DNA of 64,000 bases, taken from the NCBI GenBank assembly GCA_024277255.1, contig JAJRVQ010000126.1:1-64000 (forward strand), written 5' to 3'. This document shows, in pieces, positions 1 to 7,875 of the stretch. The notes under the pieces are model-generated. The model did no database searches, was not told the DNA's origin, and was given only the letters and a program-made list of their open reading frames with translations. Positions within the stretch are counted from its first letter, which is position 1. Each line of letters starts with the position of its first letter. Made by a program: the position numbers and the translations under genes. This DNA is from Acidobacteriota bacterium (GTDB lineage Bacteria > Acidobacteriota > Thermoanaerobaculia > Multivoradales > SZUA-115).

Positions 1-99
1 CTTCGCCTCCTCCAGCTCAACTTGTTCGAACGAAGGCCGCTCGAACAGCTCCTCAGACCGCCTGATCCCGTCGCAACGGATATTCCTCTTCAGCTCCAC
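1..99 (-). CDS. possible 5' end of a gene cut by the left window edge
   Basis: After the stop of the NuoF-like gene the same frame stays open on the minus strand to the window edge. A GTG at 99-97 could start it (reads roughly VELKRNIRCDGIRRSEEL). No convincing ribosome binding site lies in front of the GTG. It may be the next gene of the peptide operon, or chance. It does not resemble the missing C-terminal part of NuoF. Confidence 0.2.
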   Translation of the reverse strand, partial: MELKRNIRCDGIRRSEELFERPSFEQVELEEAK

Positions 100-117
100 C
101 TCGGGATTGCATGAAAG

Positions 118-1221
118 TTAGTGGGACAGCAGTGGCGTTCGGTTGGTGCCGTCTTGGCACGGTTGACACTTTCCACACGAGGCTCGGTGGAAGAAGGCGC
201 CGAGTTCGATGGCAAGATCGGTGACCGATTGGCCGGCGCCGATCACGATGACCGCGCCAGAACCGAGATCGGAGTCGACTTCGGTCAGCGAATCGAAATC
301 CATTGGGACATCGAACATTTCGGAGGTCAGGATGCGGGAGCCTGGTCCGCCGGGTAGAACACCCTGTATCTCGGTTCCGTCGACGCCTCCACCCCCCAAG
401 TCATAGAGCAGAGTACGAAGGGGCGTTCCGAGAGGCAGTTCGTAGAGTCCGGGCCGCTCGACATCGCCCGAGAGGCTGAAGACCATGGTTCCCGGCGTGT
501 ACCGGCCACCCGTCTTGCGGAAGATCTCTGCGCCATGGCGGGCCACAAAACCGGCGTGCAGGAGAGTCTCCAGGTTGGTGACCGCCGTCGGATGACCGAG
601 GATCCCCTTGCTGGTCGGCAAGGGAGGCTTCCCGCGCGGTCGTCCCACTCTTCCCTCGACGATCTCCATGAGGGCCGTCTCTTCACCGGTGATGTAGCCG
701 CCAGGCGATCGAACGACCAGGAGTTCGATCTCTGTACGAGGTCTGACGGCGGAGAGAGCCTCCTCCAGGAGTCGCTGCTCATCAACGCTCTCTCGGCCCA
801 GGTAGAGAATGCCCACCTGCGCACCCACCGCCCAGGAGGCTAACAGTAGATCGGCGACGACTCTGGCTGGATTCTTGCTGAGAAGAAGCCGTGCCTTGAA
901 GGTTCCGGGTGCGCCGGAATGAGCGTTGCAAACGAAGAAACGCGCTTCGTCCTCGCCCGAAGCTAGCTGTTGCCATTTCCAGGCAACCGGAAACCCTCCG
1001 CCTGCTCGGCCTCGTAGCCCAGACCTTTCAAGTTCCAGGAGGAAGCTCTCCCGGGATGAGTACTGCGCCTTGATCGACGCGAGGACTGCCAGCGGGTCCG
1101 TTGCCTCGACTGCCAGATCCCGGAGGAGCGGCCCTGGATGGACGAGTGGCTCGAAGTCCGAGCTACGGAGAGGACTCAGCAAACCTCTGGAACACGTAAG
1201 CTGCATCTGGGCTAGTTCCAT
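118..1221 (-). CDS. NuoF-like flavoprotein in a RiPP operon, C-terminally shortened
   Basis: This 367-aa protein resembles the 51-kDa FMN/NADH-binding subunit of complex I (NuoF/HoxF family, normally about 420-440 aa). Visible signatures are the glycine-rich GRAGGGFP at residues 71-78, GEETALMEIVEG at 179-190, the KPP segment at 198-200, an SLBB-like region and the iron-sulfur motif CGKCQPC at 349-355. Two points are odd. The acidic NADESEPG motif of the nucleotide pocket reads NAHSGAPG (99-106). The chain also ends 12 residues after the third cluster cysteine, so the usual fourth cysteine ligand is absent. No other nuo gene is nearby, and it overlaps the end of the secreted-protein gene, so it is probably the last readable gene of the peptide operon. 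An electron-donor or flavin redox role in peptide maturation is inference. The ATG at 1221 is tentative; another in-frame ATG lies at 1206. Confidence 0.75.
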   Translation of the reverse strand: MELAQMQLTCSRGLLSPLRSSDFEPLVHPGPLLRDLAVEATDPLAVLASIKAQYSSRESFLLELERSGLRGRAGGGFPVAWKWQQLASGEDEARFFVCNAHSGAPGTFKARLLLSKNPARVVADLLLASWAVGAQVGILYLGRESVDEQRLLEEALSAVRPRTEIELLVVRSPGGYITGEETALMEIVEGRVGRPRGKPPLPTSKGILGHPTAVTNLETLLHAGFVARHGAEIFRKTGGRYTPGTMVFSLSGDVERPGLYELPLGTPLRTLLYDLGGGGVDGTEIQGVLPGGPGSRILTSEMFDVPMDFDSLTEVDSDLGSGAVIVIGAGQSVTDLAIELGAFFHRASCGKCQPCQDGTNRTPLLSH

Positions 1222-1627
1222 AACCGATGGTGGGTTTTTCAGTTTGTAGTCGGAATTCGTGGTCGATCCTCACAAATGCCACCGCCGGATGGGGCAACAT
1301 CGGTACACCAGAGTCCAGCTCGATCACTGTTCCTGCAATGTCAATCCGAAGGCTGTTTTTCCGGAACTCTCCCGCCACCTCTGCGCCATCAAAGTCCTGC
1401 GTTGCGACCGTGAGCAAACCCAGGCCCGGCAAATAGAGGAAGATATATTCGAGCTGGCTCAGCACCATCGACAGATCCTCTAGGACCAGATCATCATTCA
1501 CGCTGACCCTGCCATCCGCAACCTGAAATCCACCCATGCGGCTCGCCATTGCGGGGGATACAGAACCCGCCGTTACAATGGTCGTTGCCACCATCGTCGT
1601 CACGAGTCGTTTCGCTTGTTCGTTCAT
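1163..1627 (-). CDS. small secreted protein of the RiPP operon, unknown function
   Basis: This 154-aa protein has a clear signal peptide (MNEQAKRLVTTMVATT..., with a likely cleavage after AMAS near residue 29). A mature part of about 125 residues follows, rich in short beta-like hydrophobic stretches. I recognise no family. A GGGAG ribosome binding site precedes the ATG. The gene follows the precursor peptide by about 180 bp on the same strand and overlaps the NuoF-like gene by 59 bp, so the two are probably co-expressed. Its export suggests that it works in the periplasm or outside the cell, perhaps as a binding or immunity protein for the mature peptide; that role is a guess from position only. 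Confidence 0.6.
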   Translation of the reverse strand: MNEQAKRLVTTMVATTIVTAGSVSPAMASRMGGFQVADGRVSVNDDLVLEDLSMVLSQLEYIFLYLPGLGLLTVATQDFDGAEVAGEFRKNSLRIDIAGTVIELDSGVPMLPHPAVAFVRIDHEFRLQTEKPTIGYGTSPDAAYVFQRFAESSP

Positions 1628-1714
1628 TCGCTACCCACTCCCTTTCTCGAAGCACTGGACGATGTTCTCTGCAAGAACTACGTCCATCACGACACTCCGT
1701 GCTAGATTGAAAAC

Positions 1715-1789
1715 GCAGCCCGAACCTCCTAGCGTCCACGCTGGAAGCATCAGCTGACAAACGTGCGCCGTTTCTAAGGTTCGGGCTGC
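1715..1789 (-). other. long-range inverted repeat between precursor and next gene
   Basis: Thirteen bases at 1715-1727 (GCAGCCCGAACCT) are exactly complementary to 1777-1789, with a 49-base loop that holds a further small AGCG/CGCT hairpin. It lies just downstream of the precursor peptide gene on the minus strand. There is no T-run, so it is not a classical terminator. It could act as an attenuator or as an RNA-end stabiliser that raises precursor mRNA relative to the genes behind it. Confidence 0.6.
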
Positions 1790-1806
1790 ATCTCAGCTAC
1801 CGAGAG

Positions 1807-1941
1807 CTAGCGCTTAGCCCCAGCCCCACCGCCACCGCCACCGCCACCGCCGGCGCCACCCTGGCACGAGCAGCCACATGAGCAAGCAGCTATCACGTCT
1901 GGCTGGATAGCCGTGGACACAAAGGCTTGTGGAATGAACAT
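1807..1941 (-). CDS. RiPP precursor peptide, 44 aa, CxCxCxC plus polyglycine core
   Basis: A short gene lies just downstream of the radical SAM maturase. It encodes 44 residues: a leader starting MFIPQAFVSTAIQ, then CSCGCSC at residues 20-26, QGGA, nine consecutive glycines (31-39) and a final AGAKR. A near-ideal Shine-Dalgarno sequence (AAGGAGGTGA, 1957-1948) sits six bases before the ATG, stronger than those of its neighbours, as expected for a highly translated precursor. The alternating cysteines are the likely sites for thioether or other radical-based crosslinks made by the SPASM enzyme, and the leader would be bound by that enzyme's PqqD-like domain. The cleavage site is not evident: there is no GG motif before the cysteines, and the exporter lacks a C39 peptidase. 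I cannot match this core pattern to a named RiPP family. Confidence 0.8.
   Translation of the reverse strand: MFIPQAFVSTAIQPDVIAACSCGCSCQGGAGGGGGGGGGAGAKR
1826..1849. repeat. hexamer microsatellite inside the precursor core
   Basis: Four perfect tandem copies of CCACCG (plus strand) encode the alternating GGC/GGT glycine codons of the precursor tail. Such a tract could gain or lose Gly-Gly units by slippage without breaking the frame. Confidence 0.85.
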
Positions 1942-1947
1942 CTAGTT

Positions 1948-1957
1948 TCACCTCCTT
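1948..1957 (-). promoter_or_regulatory. strong ribosome binding site of the precursor
   Basis: The minus strand reads AAGGAGGTGA, an extended match to the 16S anti-Shine-Dalgarno sequence, six bases before the ATG at 1941. It fixes the start of the 44-aa peptide. Confidence 0.85.
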
Positions 1958-2006: not shown

Positions 2007-2026
2007 GCCTAATCGTTACATTAGGC
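2007..2026 (-). terminator. hairpin over the stop codon of the radical SAM gene
   Basis: Seven-base arms (GCCTAAT at 2007-2013 and ATTAGGC at 2020-2026) enclose a six-base loop and overlap the TAA of the maturase gene. No T-run follows, so this may be a weak terminator, a processing site or an mRNA-stability hairpin between maturase and precursor. Confidence 0.35.
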
Positions 2027-3427
2027 GCATGCTGTGACGTGCGATTCCACGGGAATATCGCTCGACCCCCACATCTTCTCGATCGCGATCTTCTCGAGAT
2101 GCCGGCAGTAGATTTCGTTGAGGGCGTCGAAGCGCCGATAAACGTTGTAGGCCGTTGCGCGACAGCCTCCATTGCAGAGGTTCTTCAGGTCGCAGTGTAG
2201 GCAGGCATCGATCCGGTCGACCACCATGCCCCGGACCTGCCGCATCACCGGGGAGGTGTCGAAGATCTCCTGGATGTCTGTCTCTCGAATGTTGCCGCAG
2301 AGAAACTCGTCGAAGTGGAGGGACTGACACGGGTAGACAAAACCGGAGGGGTCGATGCTGAACTCGCCGTGCCCAACGCCGCAGTGGTTTCTTGGTGCAA
2401 TGCCCTGTGCCGGTTCGCACTCGACGCTCAGACTCTTGCGCCGCTTGTCAAGGTAGGCAACGAGTCTCTCTTGTGCCGCGTTCCACTCTTCTAGCATCGG
2501 TATCTGCTCGAGGCTTAATTTTTGATGATCTCCTGCTTGAAAGATGATCGGCGCCAAGAAGTCGGCGCCCAGGTCGTCCAGGGCAAACTCGAAGATCTCC
2601 TTGAGGAAACCTATGTTCTTGTCGGTGAGAGCTGGAACGAGCGCGATGTGAGGCTTCTCCGTGCCTCTCTTCTCCCGAACCTCGACGAGATTTCTAATTC
2701 CCCGAACTGTCGGCAAGAACGTGTTCTTGCCTCGAAAGTGCTCATGGAGATGGCTCTCGTGCCCGTCGATGCTGATGGTGACGGTGTCGACCAGGTCGAC
2801 CAGGCGCTCAGCCACTTCGCCCTTGATGAGGATTCCATTGGTCAACACCTCGAGGGTGAGGTCGTCGCTAAGGGAACGCGCATGCTCCAATAGATCCAGG
2901 ACATCCGGTCTCATCAGTGGCTCTCCACCGGTGAAGAACAGGTGCTTCGCTCCGAGGGAGACGATGCGATCGAGAAGAGCCTTGTACTCGTCGGTGGTGA
3001 GGATCGGAGCGAAGCGCCCCTTCTTCTGGAGTTCGATCTTGAACTCCCGATCGCTCTTGTTGTAGCAGTATGGGCACTTGAGGTTGCAGTCGTTGGTCAG
3101 GTGGAGATAGATGGCATAGGCAAACTCTCTCGGAGCGAATTCGAAGCGCTCGTTCTCGCGGTACCGCTCGCTGTGCAAGAAGCCGGACTCGACCAGCGGC
3201 TGGACGAAGTCGTCCACGGCGGTCCTCGCCTCCTGCTCGGCAATGTCGAAGGTCTCGCCGACTTCCCCGATGACCTGTTCCACGGTGCGGTACTTCCGGA
3301 ACTGCTCGATGAGAAAACGCCCGCTCTCGTTGACCCGAACCCAGGTGAAGTTGTATGGGTCGAAGTACAGGAACCACTCCCCTTGCCGAAATACGCGGGT
3401 GCGTGGCGGGACCAGGACTCTATTCAC
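2021..3427 (-). CDS. PqqD-like/radical SAM/SPASM peptide maturase
   Basis: This 468-aa enzyme probably modifies the 44-aa precursor encoded immediately downstream. Residues 1-90 resemble a PqqD-type RiPP recognition element (leader-binding winged helix). The radical SAM cluster motif is CNLKCPYC (C114, C118, C121), followed by GGEP at 167-170. A full SPASM region carries two auxiliary-cluster cysteine sets (C349, C367, C377, C409, C412, C418, C422, C441). The GTG at 3427 is chosen as start because a GAGGAGG ribosome binding site (3440-3434) precedes it by six bases. This makes the gene overlap the exporter stop by eight bases, so the two are translationally coupled. Enzymes of this architecture make thioether, C-C or other crosslinks; the exact chemistry here cannot be read from sequence. 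Confidence 0.9.
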   Translation of the reverse strand: MNRVLVPPRTRVFRQGEWFLYFDPYNFTWVRVNESGRFLIEQFRKYRTVEQVIGEVGETFDIAEQEARTAVDDFVQPLVESGFLHSERYRENERFEFAPREFAYAIYLHLTNDCNLKCPYCYNKSDREFKIELQKKGRFAPILTTDEYKALLDRIVSLGAKHLFFTGGEPLMRPDVLDLLEHARSLSDDLTLEVLTNGILIKGEVAERLVDLVDTVTISIDGHESHLHEHFRGKNTFLPTVRGIRNLVEVREKRGTEKPHIALVPALTDKNIGFLKEIFEFALDDLGADFLAPIIFQAGDHQKLSLEQIPMLEEWNAAQERLVAYLDKRRKSLSVECEPAQGIAPRNHCGVGHGEFSIDPSGFVYPCQSLHFDEFLCGNIRETDIQEIFDTSPVMRQVRGMVVDRIDACLHCDLKNLCNGGCRATAYNVYRRFDALNEIYCRHLEKIAIEKMWGSSDIPVESHVTACA

Positions 3428-5219
3428 GGAGTACCTCCTCGAGAGCGAGTGCATCCTGCTCCGCGAGAGGGTCGACCGCTTGCTGGGGACGGAACTGTTG
3501 CCTGAACAACCGCGTGTAGGCACCGTCTCTTGCCAGCAGCTCCGTGTGGGACCCCTCTTCGATCACCGATCCGTCTTCCAGCATCACGACTCGATCGGCG
3601 AGCATGAGCGATGAGAGACGGTGCGCGATGACGATCGTCGTGCGGTCTTGGGTAAGGCGCTGAAGGGCCTGTTGAATCTCTGCTTCTGACTCAGAATCGA
3701 CGGCCGAGACGGCTTCGTCGAGAATCAGGACCGTCGGGTTCCTGAGGAAAGCGCGAGCCAGCGCGATTCGCTGAGCCTGTCCTCCAGACAGTCTCGCTCC
3801 ACGCTCGCCGACGACGGTGTCGTAGCCGTCGTCGAGCTGCTGAATGAAATCGTGGGCGCTGGCCAACCGACATGCTTGCTCGACCTCGGCCCGGGTTGCT
3901 TCGACTGACGCCTGGCGCAGATTCTCGAGAATGCTCCCCTGGAACAAGAAGGTCTGCTGATCGACAATCCCGATGGTGCTCCGGAGCGTCTCAAGAGAGA
4001 TGTCCAGCACATCGCGCCCGCTGAGAAAAACGGTTCCGGGAGGCGGTTCGTAGAAGCGGAGCAACAGGTTCATCAGTGTGCTCTTGCCGACCCCCGATCG
4101 GCCGACCAGAGCGACGGTCGACCCCTTCGGGACGGAAAGGGTGACGTCGTGCAGAACCTCACAGCCATCGTCGTAACCGAAGGAGAGCTGGCGAAACTCG
4201 AGATCTCCTTCGAGGGTAGCCCCGACCTCGCCATCGCTCGGCTCGGGCTGCTCGTCGAGGAACTCGTAGATTCGGCTCAGTGCCGACGCTGCCGACTGGA
4301 CGCTCAGGTTCCCTGCCACAATGCCGTTGACCGGACCAAAGATGAAGGTCAGAAGGGAGAGGATGCCGACGACCTCTCCGACGGTCATCGTGCCGTTGAT
4401 GACAGCCGTCATGCCGTACCAGAGGATGAACGTGATGCAAAGAGAGGTGATCAGTCCCGTACCGATCGTGCTGATGATTCCGAACCAATTGGCTCTGACA
4501 TAGACGTCTTTGAGCCTCCCGAGACTTCGAGAGGTCACTCTCTCTCGACCCTCTTGGTGTTGCAGCGCCTTGATGGTACGGATTCCCGCAAAGCTCTCCG
4601 CAACCAGTGCGGAGCTGACCGCCTGCGATTCCTGCATCTCGCTACTGAGGTCTCTCATGCGGGCGTTGGCGAAGAAACGGATGTAGGCGAAGGGAGCGAC
4701 CATCAACAGTAGGAACGCCCCCAATTGCCAATGCAGCACCATGACCACAACCGCTCCAACAATGAAGGTCAGGCCATTCATCACCAGGCCCAAGATGGTG
4801 CGGACGAGAGCCCCCTCAATCGCTCGCGAGTCATTCATCACCCTTGACTGCAGGTAGGTCGAGTGCTGGTTCGAGAAAAACCGGAGGGGTAACGCCTGAA
4901 CATGGTGAACCAACCTCTTCAGTACGTCGAAGATGATCGATTCGCGCAGCCGTAGAGTCAGCGACTCATTCAGGTAGGTAACGAGATGGCTAACGAGAAC
5001 GAGGACGAGCATGATCGCCGCGAGGAGAGAGACCGCCTGCAGGTCGCGGGTCTCCACCGCCTTGTCGATGATGAGCATGGTGAGGAGCGGCGCCGGTAGC
5101 TGGAGCAGCACCGCGGCCAGCATCAACCCACCGATTGCGACGAGCCGCAACTTGTAGGCACTCAGGAAATCACGCCAGAAACGGCGGACCAGGCTCACGC
5201 TTCTCGACTCTAAAGTCAC
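3420..5219 (-). CDS. ABC exporter (fused membrane and ATPase domains) of the RiPP operon
   Basis: This 599-aa half-transporter has a six-helix type-1 exporter membrane domain (about residues 20-315) and a nucleotide-binding domain with Walker A GRSGVGKS (373-380), LSGGQ (477-481) and Walker B VLILDE (497-502). It has no N-terminal C39 peptidase, so leader removal must be done elsewhere. The GTG at 5219 with GGGAG upstream is preferred as start. Longer readings run into the promoter at 5322-5350. It is the first gene of the operon and overlaps the radical SAM gene, so export of the mature peptide or immunity is the natural inference. A lipid or drug exporter of the MsbA type cannot be excluded from sequence alone. 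Confidence 0.85.
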   Translation of the reverse strand: MTLESRSVSLVRRFWRDFLSAYKLRLVAIGGLMLAAVLLQLPAPLLTMLIIDKAVETRDLQAVSLLAAIMLVLVLVSHLVTYLNESLTLRLRESIIFDVLKRLVHHVQALPLRFFSNQHSTYLQSRVMNDSRAIEGALVRTILGLVMNGLTFIVGAVVVMVLHWQLGAFLLLMVAPFAYIRFFANARMRDLSSEMQESQAVSSALVAESFAGIRTIKALQHQEGRERVTSRSLGRLKDVYVRANWFGIISTIGTGLITSLCITFILWYGMTAVINGTMTVGEVVGILSLLTFIFGPVNGIVAGNLSVQSAASALSRIYEFLDEQPEPSDGEVGATLEGDLEFRQLSFGYDDGCEVLHDVTLSVPKGSTVALVGRSGVGKSTLMNLLLRFYEPPPGTVFLSGRDVLDISLETLRSTIGIVDQQTFLFQGSILENLRQASVEATRAEVEQACRLASAHDFIQQLDDGYDTVVGERGARLSGGQAQRIALARAFLRNPTVLILDEAVSAVDSESEAEIQQALQRLTQDRTTIVIAHRLSSLMLADRVVMLEDGSVIEEGSHTELLARDGAYTRLFRQQFRPQQAVDPLAEQDALALEEVLRE

Positions 5220-5466: not shown

Positions 5467-7875
5467 ATGCAGACGATGTATAGCTCGATGCGTTGGTTGG
5501 CGCAGCCGTTGCGCAAGCTCAAGAGTCAGGGACGCTTGGTAGCCTCGATTGTCACCATCTTGACCCTGGGGATCGGACCGAGCGCCGCGATCTTCTGCAT
5601 CGCCTATGGCGTGCTTCTCAAACCTCTGAGTTACGACCAACCAGGGAAGCTGGTGAGTCTCTGGCCAGACAGGATGGTGAACAAGCTGGCGTTTCGGGAA
5701 GTCGCCGAGAAGAGCACCAGCTTCGAGTTCGTCACGGCATACGCAGCCCACCGCTTTCCGGTCACCGGGAAGACGGACTCATTCGTGGTGAATGGGAGTC
5801 TGGTCGGCACGGATCACTTCCAGTTGCTGAGAGAGGAGCCCTGGCTTGGGCGAGTCTTCTTGCCTGAGGAGAGTCAGCCGGGCAAGAACCAAGTCCTGAT
5901 CCTCAGCCATCGACTCTGGTTGCAGCGTTACGGAGGTGACCGAGAGATCGTAGACAGCTTCCTGTCTATCGACGGAATTCCCTACGTGGTGGTTGGTGTG
6001 ATGAAGCCCGATTTTCGTCCTCTCGACGCCAGCTGGGAGATGTGGTCTCCACTGCCCATCGATTCCTCGAATGAGCAGGACTTCCTCGGTTCGTTCTACC
6101 TGAAGCTCGTCGGCCGTCTCCGTCCGGAGGCGAGTCCTGAGATCGCCACCAGCGAACTCCGCTGGACTTGCCAACAGCTCCAGGTGGCCTATCCGAATCT
6201 CATCTTGGATGAAATGGTGGAGGCGGCGAAGGTGGTGAGTCTGCGAGAGTATCTCTCCGGGCAAGCTGCTCCAGTTCTCGCTGTTCTCCTGGGAGCGGTG
6301 GTCTTTCTCTTCGTGATCGCCTGCGCCAACGTTGCCAACCTTCTGCTGGTCGCCGCTCGGGCGCGGCGAAAGGAGACGGCGATTCGCTCAGCTCTCGGAG
6401 CCGCTCCTTCGCGCTTGTTCCGCGAAGCCCTCGGCGAAAGCCTCCTCCTCGGCCTCGTTGGCGGAGCCACCGGCCTCGTTGCCGGAGCCGTGGCGGTGAA
6501 ACTAATCCTGTTGAGGTTTCCCGCCATCTTGCCGCGCTCGCCCGACATCGGCTTTTCCGGCCCCGTTTTTCTCTACACGTTCCTGCTCGCGGTGGCCGCA
6601 GCCGTATTGTCTGGCGCATGGCCGGCCTATCGCGTCTTCCGCACGAGGCTTCAGGGCGACCTGCAAGCAGGTGAGGAGAAGAGTGGGAGGCGTCGCGGTT
6701 TCGCATCGGGCTACCTCCTCTTCGCGATTCAAGTGATGGCCTCGACGATCTTGTTGATCGCGGCCGGCCTGATCCTCAACAGCCTGACAAAGCTGAGAGC
6801 GGTCGATCCGGGCTTCACCGAATCCGGTCTTCTGACTCTTCGGCTCGACCCGCCGTCGGCGATCTACCGAGAACCTGAAAGTCTGGTCTCGTACCATCAG
6901 CACGTGCTCGATAACGTCCGCGCGCTACCCGGCGTGACCGCGGCTGGAGCGATCCACCTGCTTCCGCTGACCTCGGACAATTGGAGCTTTCCCTACATGA
7001 CCGAGGACCTGACACTTCCCTCGGATGGATCTCAAATGGCCTTGCCGACTGCGAACTTTCGGGTTGTCACTCCTGGGTACTTCGAGGCTCTCTCGATTCC
7101 AGTACGTTCAGGCGAGGTCTTTTCTATCGAGAATACGGCGGACAGTCCGGCCGTGGGACTGATCAACCAAACCTTGGCCGACAACCTCTGGCCTGAGGAG
7201 CCGGCCGAGGGCAAGACTATCCAGCTTTTCGGCTCCGGCGGTCCCACTTTCACCGTGATCGGAGTTGTTGGAGACGTGCACCAGCACAGTCTGGACAAGC
7301 GGGCCGAGCCGGAGATCTATCGCCCGATCACCCAGTGGTCGATTGGACCGATGTATCTGATGGTCCGCTCGCCGCTACCCGCGAAGTCTCTTTGGGGTCA
7401 ACTCCGGGCGACGATCTCTTCGATCGACCCAGCCGTGCCAATCTCCCAAACGCGCCCGATGAAGGAGGTTGTCGCGGCGTCGATGTCCGACAGGCTGTTA
7501 ACCGTCAGCCTGGTCACGATCTTCGCCGGGCTTGCCCTATCGCTCTCGATCGCGGGGATCTATAGCGTTCTGAGCTACTCGGTGGCTCGCCGCCGCCGGG
7601 AGATCGGTATCCGAATGGCCTTGGGAGCTCGCCGAAGCGACATCGCCAGAACCGTCGTTGGCCGCGGGCTCGCCGTGGCTGGACTTGCCTTGGCCGTGGG
7701 ATTGGCGCTCGGGATCGTCCTTTCGCGCTACTTGGCGTCGCAGTTGTTCGAGGTCACCCCTTCCGATCCAGTAACGCTGGTCTCGGTCGTTCTCATCGTC
7801 CTGGCAACCGTCGTCGTGAGCCTGTGGATTCCGACCCACCGTGCCACTCTCGTTGATCCGCGGACCGTGATGTGA
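5467..7875 (+). CDS. ADOP-family FtsX/MacB-like permease
   Basis: This protein of about 802 aa has the double-FtsX layout typical of acidobacterial orphan permeases. It has a first membrane helix near residues 25-45, a MacB-type periplasmic core, a first FtsX block around 270-390 (CANVANLLLVAARARRKE), another helix near 425, a second periplasmic part and a final FtsX block (ARRRREIGIRMALGARR). There is no ATPase domain and no adjacent ATPase gene on its strand. The ATG at 5467 is preferred over an upstream TTG because GAGG lies about 11 bases before it. It is divergent from the RiPP operon, sharing a 250-bp intergenic region. These proteins may couple to MacB-like ATPases in export or cell-envelope stress; a link to peptide export or immunity is only positional. 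Confidence 0.85.
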   Translation: MQTMYSSMRWLAQPLRKLKSQGRLVASIVTILTLGIGPSAAIFCIAYGVLLKPLSYDQPGKLVSLWPDRMVNKLAFREVAEKSTSFEFVTAYAAHRFPVTGKTDSFVVNGSLVGTDHFQLLREEPWLGRVFLPEESQPGKNQVLILSHRLWLQRYGGDREIVDSFLSIDGIPYVVVGVMKPDFRPLDASWEMWSPLPIDSSNEQDFLGSFYLKLVGRLRPEASPEIATSELRWTCQQLQVAYPNLILDEMVEAAKVVSLREYLSGQAAPVLAVLLGAVVFLFVIACANVANLLLVAARARRKETAIRSALGAAPSRLFREALGESLLLGLVGGATGLVAGAVAVKLILLRFPAILPRSPDIGFSGPVFLYTFLLAVAAAVLSGAWPAYRVFRTRLQGDLQAGEEKSGRRRGFASGYLLFAIQVMASTILLIAAGLILNSLTKLRAVDPGFTESGLLTLRLDPPSAIYREPESLVSYHQHVLDNVRALPGVTAAGAIHLLPLTSDNWSFPYMTEDLTLPSDGSQMALPTANFRVVTPGYFEALSIPVRSGEVFSIENTADSPAVGLINQTLADNLWPEEPAEGKTIQLFGSGGPTFTVIGVVGDVHQHSLDKRAEPEIYRPITQWSIGPMYLMVRSPLPAKSLWGQLRATISSIDPAVPISQTRPMKEVVAASMSDRLLTVSLVTIFAGLALSLSIAGIYSVLSYSVARRRREIGIRMALGARRSDIARTVVGRGLAVAGLALAVGLALGIVLSRYLASQLFEVTPSDPVTLVSVVLIVLATVVVSLWIPTHRATLVDPRTVM

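What the first reader, a model, noticed from the sequence alone, without database searches (positions are those of the whole stretch)
1807..1941. Unannotated 44-aa precursor peptide
The gene is easily missed by gene callers. Perfect ribosome binding site, exact position after the maturase and a Cys-rich/Gly-rich core argue that it is real.
Basis: seen in the sequence. Interest (0 to 1): 0.85.

Follow-up and report, generated by a model that had tools for sequence, protein, structure and literature searches.

The report
Cys/Gly-rich radical-SAM peptide precursor
A tiny 44-residue gene next to a radical enzyme is a real, evolutionarily conserved precursor of a chemically modified peptide; the same unnamed peptide system turns up sporadically in soil bacteria and in Xanthomonas/Stenotrophomonas relatives, and its final product is unknown.

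Summary
The ORF is real. It encodes MFIPQAFVSTAIQPDVIAACSCGCSCQGGAGGGGGGGGGAGAKR, has the only AAGGAGGTGA ribosome site in the 64 kb, and starts 79 nt after a PqqD–radical SAM–SPASM gene. Orthologues of that maturase (60–61% identity) occur in Stenotrophomonas, Xanthomonas maliensis and a Pyrinomonadaceae MAG, with a decayed copy in another xanthomonad. All five loci, this one included, carry a short ORF at the same place with the same MFxPQxF leader, CxCxCxC motif and Gly-rich tail. A profile built without the window copy finds it as the only significant hit (E 3e-11). dN/dS is 0.02–0.07 over leader plus cysteines among xanthomonads. The conserved unit is ABC exporter – rSAM – precursor – secreted β-protein – NuoF-like flavoprotein (plus a NuoE-like gene here). 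In this genome nuoF is split by an insertion sequence that begins the window. No Pfam or NCBIfam model matches the precursor, and the maturase falls far below every NCBIfam cutoff seen. Best reading: a rare, unnamed RiPP family whose maturase probably makes Cys thioethers (chemistry untested), exported by the ABC protein. A paralogous cluster in the same genome makes a MFNPLGF…CGCGC peptide.

The parts
1807..1941 (-). precursor peptide gene, 44 aa
   Evidence: ORF; conserved in 5 loci; leave-one-out HMM E 2.7e-11
1885..1941 (-). putative leader MFIPQAFVSTAIQPDVIAA (MFxPQxF motif)
   Evidence: M1 F2 P4 F7 invariant in 8 homologues, Q5 in the 6 close ones; exact cleavage site unknown
1864..1884 (-). 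core motif CSCGCSC (CxCxCxC)
   Evidence: four Cys invariant in the close orthologues
1810..1863 (-). Gly-rich tail QGGAGGGGGGGGGAGAKR
   Evidence: Gly-rich in all close orthologues; last residues variable
1948..1957 (-). ribosome binding site AAGGAGGTGA
   Evidence: 6 nt before the ATG; unique in the window
2021..3427 (-). radical SAM/SPASM peptide maturase with N-terminal PqqD-like (RRE) domain, GTG start, 468 aa
   Evidence: Pfam Radical_SAM 4e-25, SPASM 5e-9, PqqD 9e-9; all catalytic and 7 SPASM Cys invariant
3420..5219 (-). ABC exporter, fused membrane and ATPase domains, no peptidase domain found (ORF open to 5354; start uncertain)
   Evidence: Pfam ABC_membrane and ABC_tran; 51-54% identical homologue at the same place in the xanthomonad loci, partial in L016
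1709..1795 (-). long stem-loop just 3' of the precursor, likely attenuator or mRNA stabiliser
   Evidence: RNA fold z -4.4; 10-13 bp hairpins at the same place in the three xanthomonad loci
1163..1627 (-). secreted all-beta protein of unknown fold, conserved in the cluster
   Evidence: 25-31% identical homologues in all loci; model pLDDT 80, no PDB fold match at E<=0.001
135..1221 (-). NuoF-like flavoprotein, 5' part of an interrupted gene (remainder plus a NuoE-like gene on contig C37)
   Evidence: Pfam Complex1_51K 1e-27; gene split by repeat
1..134 (.). end of a multi-copy insertion element that interrupts nuoF
   Evidence: 14 matches in the genome, mostly at contig ends; shared terminal sequence and 8-9 bp target duplication with C37

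Best explanation
The ORF is the precursor of a ribosomally made, post-translationally modified peptide (RiPP). Its first ~19 residues (MFxPQxF...) are a leader, probably read by the PqqD-like domain of the adjacent radical SAM/SPASM enzyme. That enzyme modifies the CxCxCxC/poly-Gly core, most likely by joining cysteine sulfurs to backbone carbons of the Gly-rich tail (sactipeptide-like thioethers). The MsbA-type ABC protein exports the product. The NuoF-like flavoprotein (with NuoE here) most likely handles electrons for the cluster, for example for the maturase, and the secreted beta-protein may carry or neutralise the product. Shown: gene, conservation, selection, synteny, domain content. 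Inferred: leader reading by the RRE, substrate-enzyme pairing (very likely), export. Guessed: thioether chemistry (~0.6), antagonistic role (~0.4), NuoEF as electron donor (~0.35).
For: Same-position peptide in every locus with the maturase. Leader and Cys invariants. dN/dS 0.15-0.16 over the gene and 0.02-0.07 over leader plus Cys among the three xanthomonads. Leave-one-out HMM. Maturase with PqqD + rSAM + 7-Cys SPASM, all key Cys invariant; nearest named model is the sactipeptide maturase StsB (166.8 bits, cutoff 625) and nearest solved structure is 5wgg, which is CteB, a SCIFF thioether maturase (identification from my own knowledge). A sactionine bond to a Gly is known in streptosactin (Cys31-Gly34; PMC8172795). 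The same logic recurs with a paralogous peptide and maturase in the same genome (C56) and in G619.
Against: Nothing shows that the peptide is modified or secreted. The maturase is below the curated cutoff of every NCBIfam model listed, so its chemistry cannot be named by membership. No leader protease gene was recognised in the cluster. In this genome nuoF is interrupted by an insertion element, so the system may be partly broken here. The acidic residues of the usual NuoF nucleotide-binding loop are replaced in all four homologues, so NADH use is doubtful.
Confidence: 0.65

Rival explanations
1. A RiPP precursor, but the maturase does other radical chemistry (beta/gamma-thioethers as in ranthipeptides, C-C links or epimerisation on the Gly/Ala/Ser tail), and the CxCxCxC thiols stay free to bind metal, so the product is a metal-binding peptide.
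For: Best-matching solved maturase is 5wgg, CteB, a ranthipeptide enzyme. CxCxCxC resembles a metal-thiolate cluster motif. Gly cannot accept beta or gamma links, but the flanking Ser/Ala/Gln could.
Against: No metal-handling gene in the cluster; the dense Gly tail is conserved next to the Cys, which fits alpha-carbon acceptors.
Confidence: 0.25
2. A peptide-derived redox cofactor (PQQ or mycofactocin-like), with the NuoF/NuoE pair as its dedicated dehydrogenase.
For: PqqD-rSAM-SPASM maturase; co-conserved NuoF-like flavoprotein and a NuoE-like gene.
Against: The C-terminal residues are variable (AKR, DDSMQQL, SPEAN, ECGK) and no Tyr/Glu or Val-Tyr pair is conserved; mftC and pqqE model scores are far below cutoff. 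The conserved part is Cys/Gly.
Confidence: 0.07
3. A spurious ORF in a GC-rich, Gly-codon-rich intergenic stretch.
For: Short, low-complexity tail.
Against: Leave-one-out HMM works even without the Gly tail (E 6e-6); purifying selection; same position in five loci across distant taxa.
Confidence: 0.01

Closest known systems
Streptosactin / StsB(GggB)-type sactipeptides (NCBIfam NF045574)
   Same: rSAM/SPASM maturase with N-terminal recognition region; short leader; Cys-to-Gly alpha-thioether known there (PMC8172795)
   Different: Maturase only 166.8 bits against a cutoff of 625; core is CxCxCxC followed by poly-Gly; Gram-negative cluster with ABC exporter, secreted beta-protein and NuoF-like gene instead of a protease and quorum-sensing regulators
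SCIFF ranthipeptides / CteB (TIGR03974, PDB 5wgg)
   Same: PqqD-rSAM-SPASM architecture; closest solved structure; Cys-rich ~45-aa precursor
   Different: 4 Cys packed as CxCxCxC, not six Cys spread over the peptide; model score 101.6 bits against cutoff 425
Hairpin sactipeptides (subtilosin A, thurincin H, SKF)
   Same: Donor Cys in the N-terminal half of the core, potential acceptors in the C-terminal half
   Different: Nearly all potential acceptors are Gly; far more compact Cys motif; no detectable sequence similarity of the precursor to any NCBIfam/Pfam family
Paralogous clusters in the same genome (C56, L017) and G619 (L024)
   Same: MFNPLxF leader + CGCGC, ABC exporter, ~30% identical maturase
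   Different: beta-branched tail (VSVTV...) instead of poly-Gly; ABC-2 permease and kinase/FGE genes instead of NuoF

Membership tests
RiPP (general) | short precursor gene with conserved leader next to a maturase carrying a recognition domain | tested here: met
RiPP (general) | enzymatic modification and leader removal | not testable with these tools
   needs expression and mass spectrometry
Sactipeptide | Cys S to C-alpha thioether in the product | not testable with these tools
   chemistry unknown
Sactipeptide | rSAM maturase with SPASM/twitch auxiliary cluster domain | tested here: met
   SPASM Pfam 5e-9 and 7 invariant SPASM Cys
StsB family (NF045574) | curated score of 625 bits | tested here: not met
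   166.8 bits
SCIFF maturase (TIGR03974) | curated score of 425 bits | tested here: not met
   101.6 bits
SCIFF precursor | six Cys in ~45 residues | tested here: not met
   four Cys, CxCxCxC; no NCBIfam hit
Mycofactocin / PQQ systems | mftC (265 bits) or pqqE (381 bits) cutoffs | tested here: not met
   105.9 and 94.3 bits
Any curated precursor family (Pfam, NCBIfam) | match to a precursor model | tested here: not met
   no hit for the window ORF, none significant for the relatives

The most novel reading that the evidence does not exclude
A separate RiPP class in which one SPASM enzyme stitches a CxCxCxC block to a poly-glycine tail by several Cys-to-Gly alpha-thioethers, driven by its own NuoF/NuoE-type electron-transfer module encoded in the cluster, and shared by horizontal transfer between Acidobacteria-like soil bacteria and xanthomonads.
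Probability: 0.25. Interest if true: 0.7.

Novelty: new variant of a known kind. Interest (0 to 1): 0.5.

Why it matters
It defines a compact, unnamed rSAM peptide family, with five loci and a clear leader motif that could be used to mine more. The Cys/poly-Gly core would be an extreme test of where SPASM enzymes place thioethers. The linked NuoF/NuoE-like genes suggest a testable answer to what reduces such enzymes in vivo. Relatives in cultured Stenotrophomonas and Xanthomonas make it approachable at the bench.

Tried and rejected
Searched plasmids with the peptide (no match) and the maturase (only ~23-30% identical enzymes). Precursor HMM in 396 genomes of the own phylum (one further, paralogous cluster) and 399 Pseudomonadota (only the known locus plus a chance frame in a GC-rich intergenic stretch). 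Maturase searches in the own order/phylum, Xanthomonadaceae, the order of the Pyrinomonadaceae MAG, Stenotrophomonas and Xanthomonas genera gave no further intact copies. Structure of the secreted protein: confident beta-fold but no PDB match at E<=0.001, so no function from it. Structure of the maturase: low confidence with four sequences, not used. Literature searches for CxCxC-type rSAM peptides or NuoF-linked RiPP clusters found nothing that describes this family, but only open-licence papers are held. Promoter scan uninformative.

Full report
What was claimed.

The observation. The minus-strand ORF 1807-1941 encodes MFIPQAFVSTAIQPDVIAACSCGCSCQGGAGGGGGGGGGAGAKR. Its ATG is preceded at 6 nt by AAAGGAGGTGA; the string AAGGAGGTGA occurs once in the 64 kb. 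It begins 79 nt after the stop of a 468-aa GTG-started protein with PqqD-like, radical SAM and SPASM domains, itself directly downstream of an ABC exporter. Downstream lie a small secreted protein and a NuoF-like flavoprotein.

Is it more than chance? A scan of species genomes with the maturase found close orthologues (60-61% identity) in Stenotrophomonas maltophilia EA1 (L004), Xanthomonas maliensis (L005) and a Pyrinomonadaceae MAG (L006); a genome search added a decayed copy in another Xanthomonadaceae genome (G264/L016). Each has a short ORF right after the maturase: MFNPQVFTGTQDLQAAAGACGCGCACSGGGAGGG..., MFDPQVFTGTQDLEAAAGACGCGCACQGGGAGGG..., MFEPQVFAGTQDLEAAAVSCGCGCACQGGGAGGG..., and two tandem copies in L006, each with a purine-rich ribosome site. 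An HMM from these five sequences, without the window copy, picks the window ORF out of 1,690 six-frame stretches at E 2.7e-11; with the Gly tail cut off it is 6e-6, and with the leader alone 0.0074, first each time. Among the three xanthomonad copies dN/dS is 0.15-0.16 over the gene and 0.02-0.07 over leader plus cysteines.

The cluster. Order in the complete relatives: ABC exporter, rSAM, precursor, secreted protein, NuoF-like; L006 is a 3.3-kb contig that shows the last four. The rSAM CxxxCxxC and the seven-Cys SPASM pattern are invariant. The secreted protein models as a compact beta-fold (pLDDT 80) with no PDB match at E<=0.001. A strong stem-loop follows the precursor stop in the window (z -4.4) and 10-13 bp hairpins sit at the same place in L004, L005 and L016. 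A common reason for such hairpins would be to keep precursor mRNA more abundant than downstream genes (inference).

NuoF is broken here. Window 1-134 is the end of a repeat with 14 matches in the genome, mostly at contig ends. The missing C-terminal part of NuoF, including the fourth Fe-S cysteine, lies at the start of contig C37 behind a repeat with the same terminal sequence AGTTAGTGGGACAGCAGTG, with an 8-9 bp target duplication ACCGAACG(C). So an insertion element interrupts nuoF, and C37 continues the cluster with a NuoE-like [2Fe-2S] protein (PF01257, E 1.9e-9). In the four NuoF homologues the usual acidic nucleotide-binding loop (vcNADEGdPG in the hydrogenase relatives) reads CNAHSG/CNANTG, so NADH may not be the electron source.

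Wider family. The precursor HMM found a second type in another genome of the phylum (G619): MFNPLAFASTAALEAATEERCGCGCTGCVSVTVDDVTVEVEVMDACGQQ, between an ABC exporter and a paralogous maturase. The same arrangement exists in the window's own genome on C56: MFNPLGFASSGVLDKSSLGEATCGCGCTGTVSVTVGGIRIIVKF, with a maturase about 30% identical to this one. M1, F2, P4, F7 and the CGC.C core are shared. A third cluster on C42 has a MFDLMKLD...CGCGESHGAGAGGDCLCG ORF before its rSAM. So this is one branch of a larger set of MFxP-leader, CGCG-core precursors with diverging tails.

Distribution. Searches of about 400 genomes each in the own phylum and in Xanthomonadaceae, plus the order of L006 and the genera of L004 and L005, gave no further intact copies of this branch. 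Near-identical cluster content in distant taxa, absence from close kin and lesions in two of five loci fit a horizontally spread, dispensable trait. The assembly is rated 8% contaminated, but the adjacent ADOP permease (TIGR03434 above cutoff) is a hallmark of Acidobacteria (own knowledge).

Mechanism. Best supported: a RiPP precursor whose leader is read by the PqqD-like domain, with the Cys/Gly core modified by the rSAM/SPASM enzyme and exported by the ABC protein. The nearest named maturase model is StsB (166.8 of the 625 bits required), and streptosactin has a Cys-to-Gly alpha-thioether (PMC8172795); the nearest structure is 5wgg, CteB (own knowledge). With four cysteines followed by almost only glycines, alpha-thioethers to Gly are the simplest guess, but this is untested and the enzyme does not belong to any curated family by score. 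An antagonistic peptide is the default role; a metal-binding or cofactor role is less likely.

Verdict. The finding is correct and now backed by comparative evidence. It is a new variant of a known kind (rSAM RiPPs), rare, without a curated family, with a notable core and a linked NuoF/NuoE-like module.

Noticed in passing
window 1-134 and genome contig C37 (L034): A multi-copy insertion element interrupts the nuoF-like gene, with an 8-9 bp target duplication; the rest of nuoF and a NuoE-like gene sit at the start of C37.
   Followed up: yes
L017 (G000 C56) 6134-6268 +: Second, paralogous cluster in the same genome with the precursor MFNPLGFASSGVLDKSSLGEATCGCGCTGTVSVTVGGIRIIVKF, then rSAM, ABC-2 permease, secreted protein and a kinase/FGE protein; the same type occurs in G619 (L024).
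   Followed up: partly
L018 (G000 C42) about 7554-7740 -: Third cluster: MFDLMKLDPVMSAPEGGALILQKSCGCGESHGAGAGGDCLCGSATGNGKGEKK... upstream of an rSAM, with a sigma54/AraC-type regulator, an ADOP permease and a second rSAM (3052-4305).
   Followed up: partly
L006 1612-1767 and 1911-2057: The Pyrinomonadaceae MAG carries two tandem diverged precursors before the secreted-protein gene.
   Followed up: partly
L016 6435-8046: In xanthomonad G264 the ABC C-terminus and rSAM N-terminus are lost next to an IS110-like transposase, while precursor, secreted protein and NuoF-like genes remain intact.
   Followed up: partly
window 1709-1795; L004 9637-9666: Strong stem-loops directly after the precursor stop codon, without a clear U-run.
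   Followed up: partly
NuoF-like proteins, alignment A5 columns about 107-112: The acidic residues of the standard NuoF nucleotide-binding loop are replaced (CNADEGDPG to CNAHSG/CNANTG) in all four homologues.
   Followed up: no
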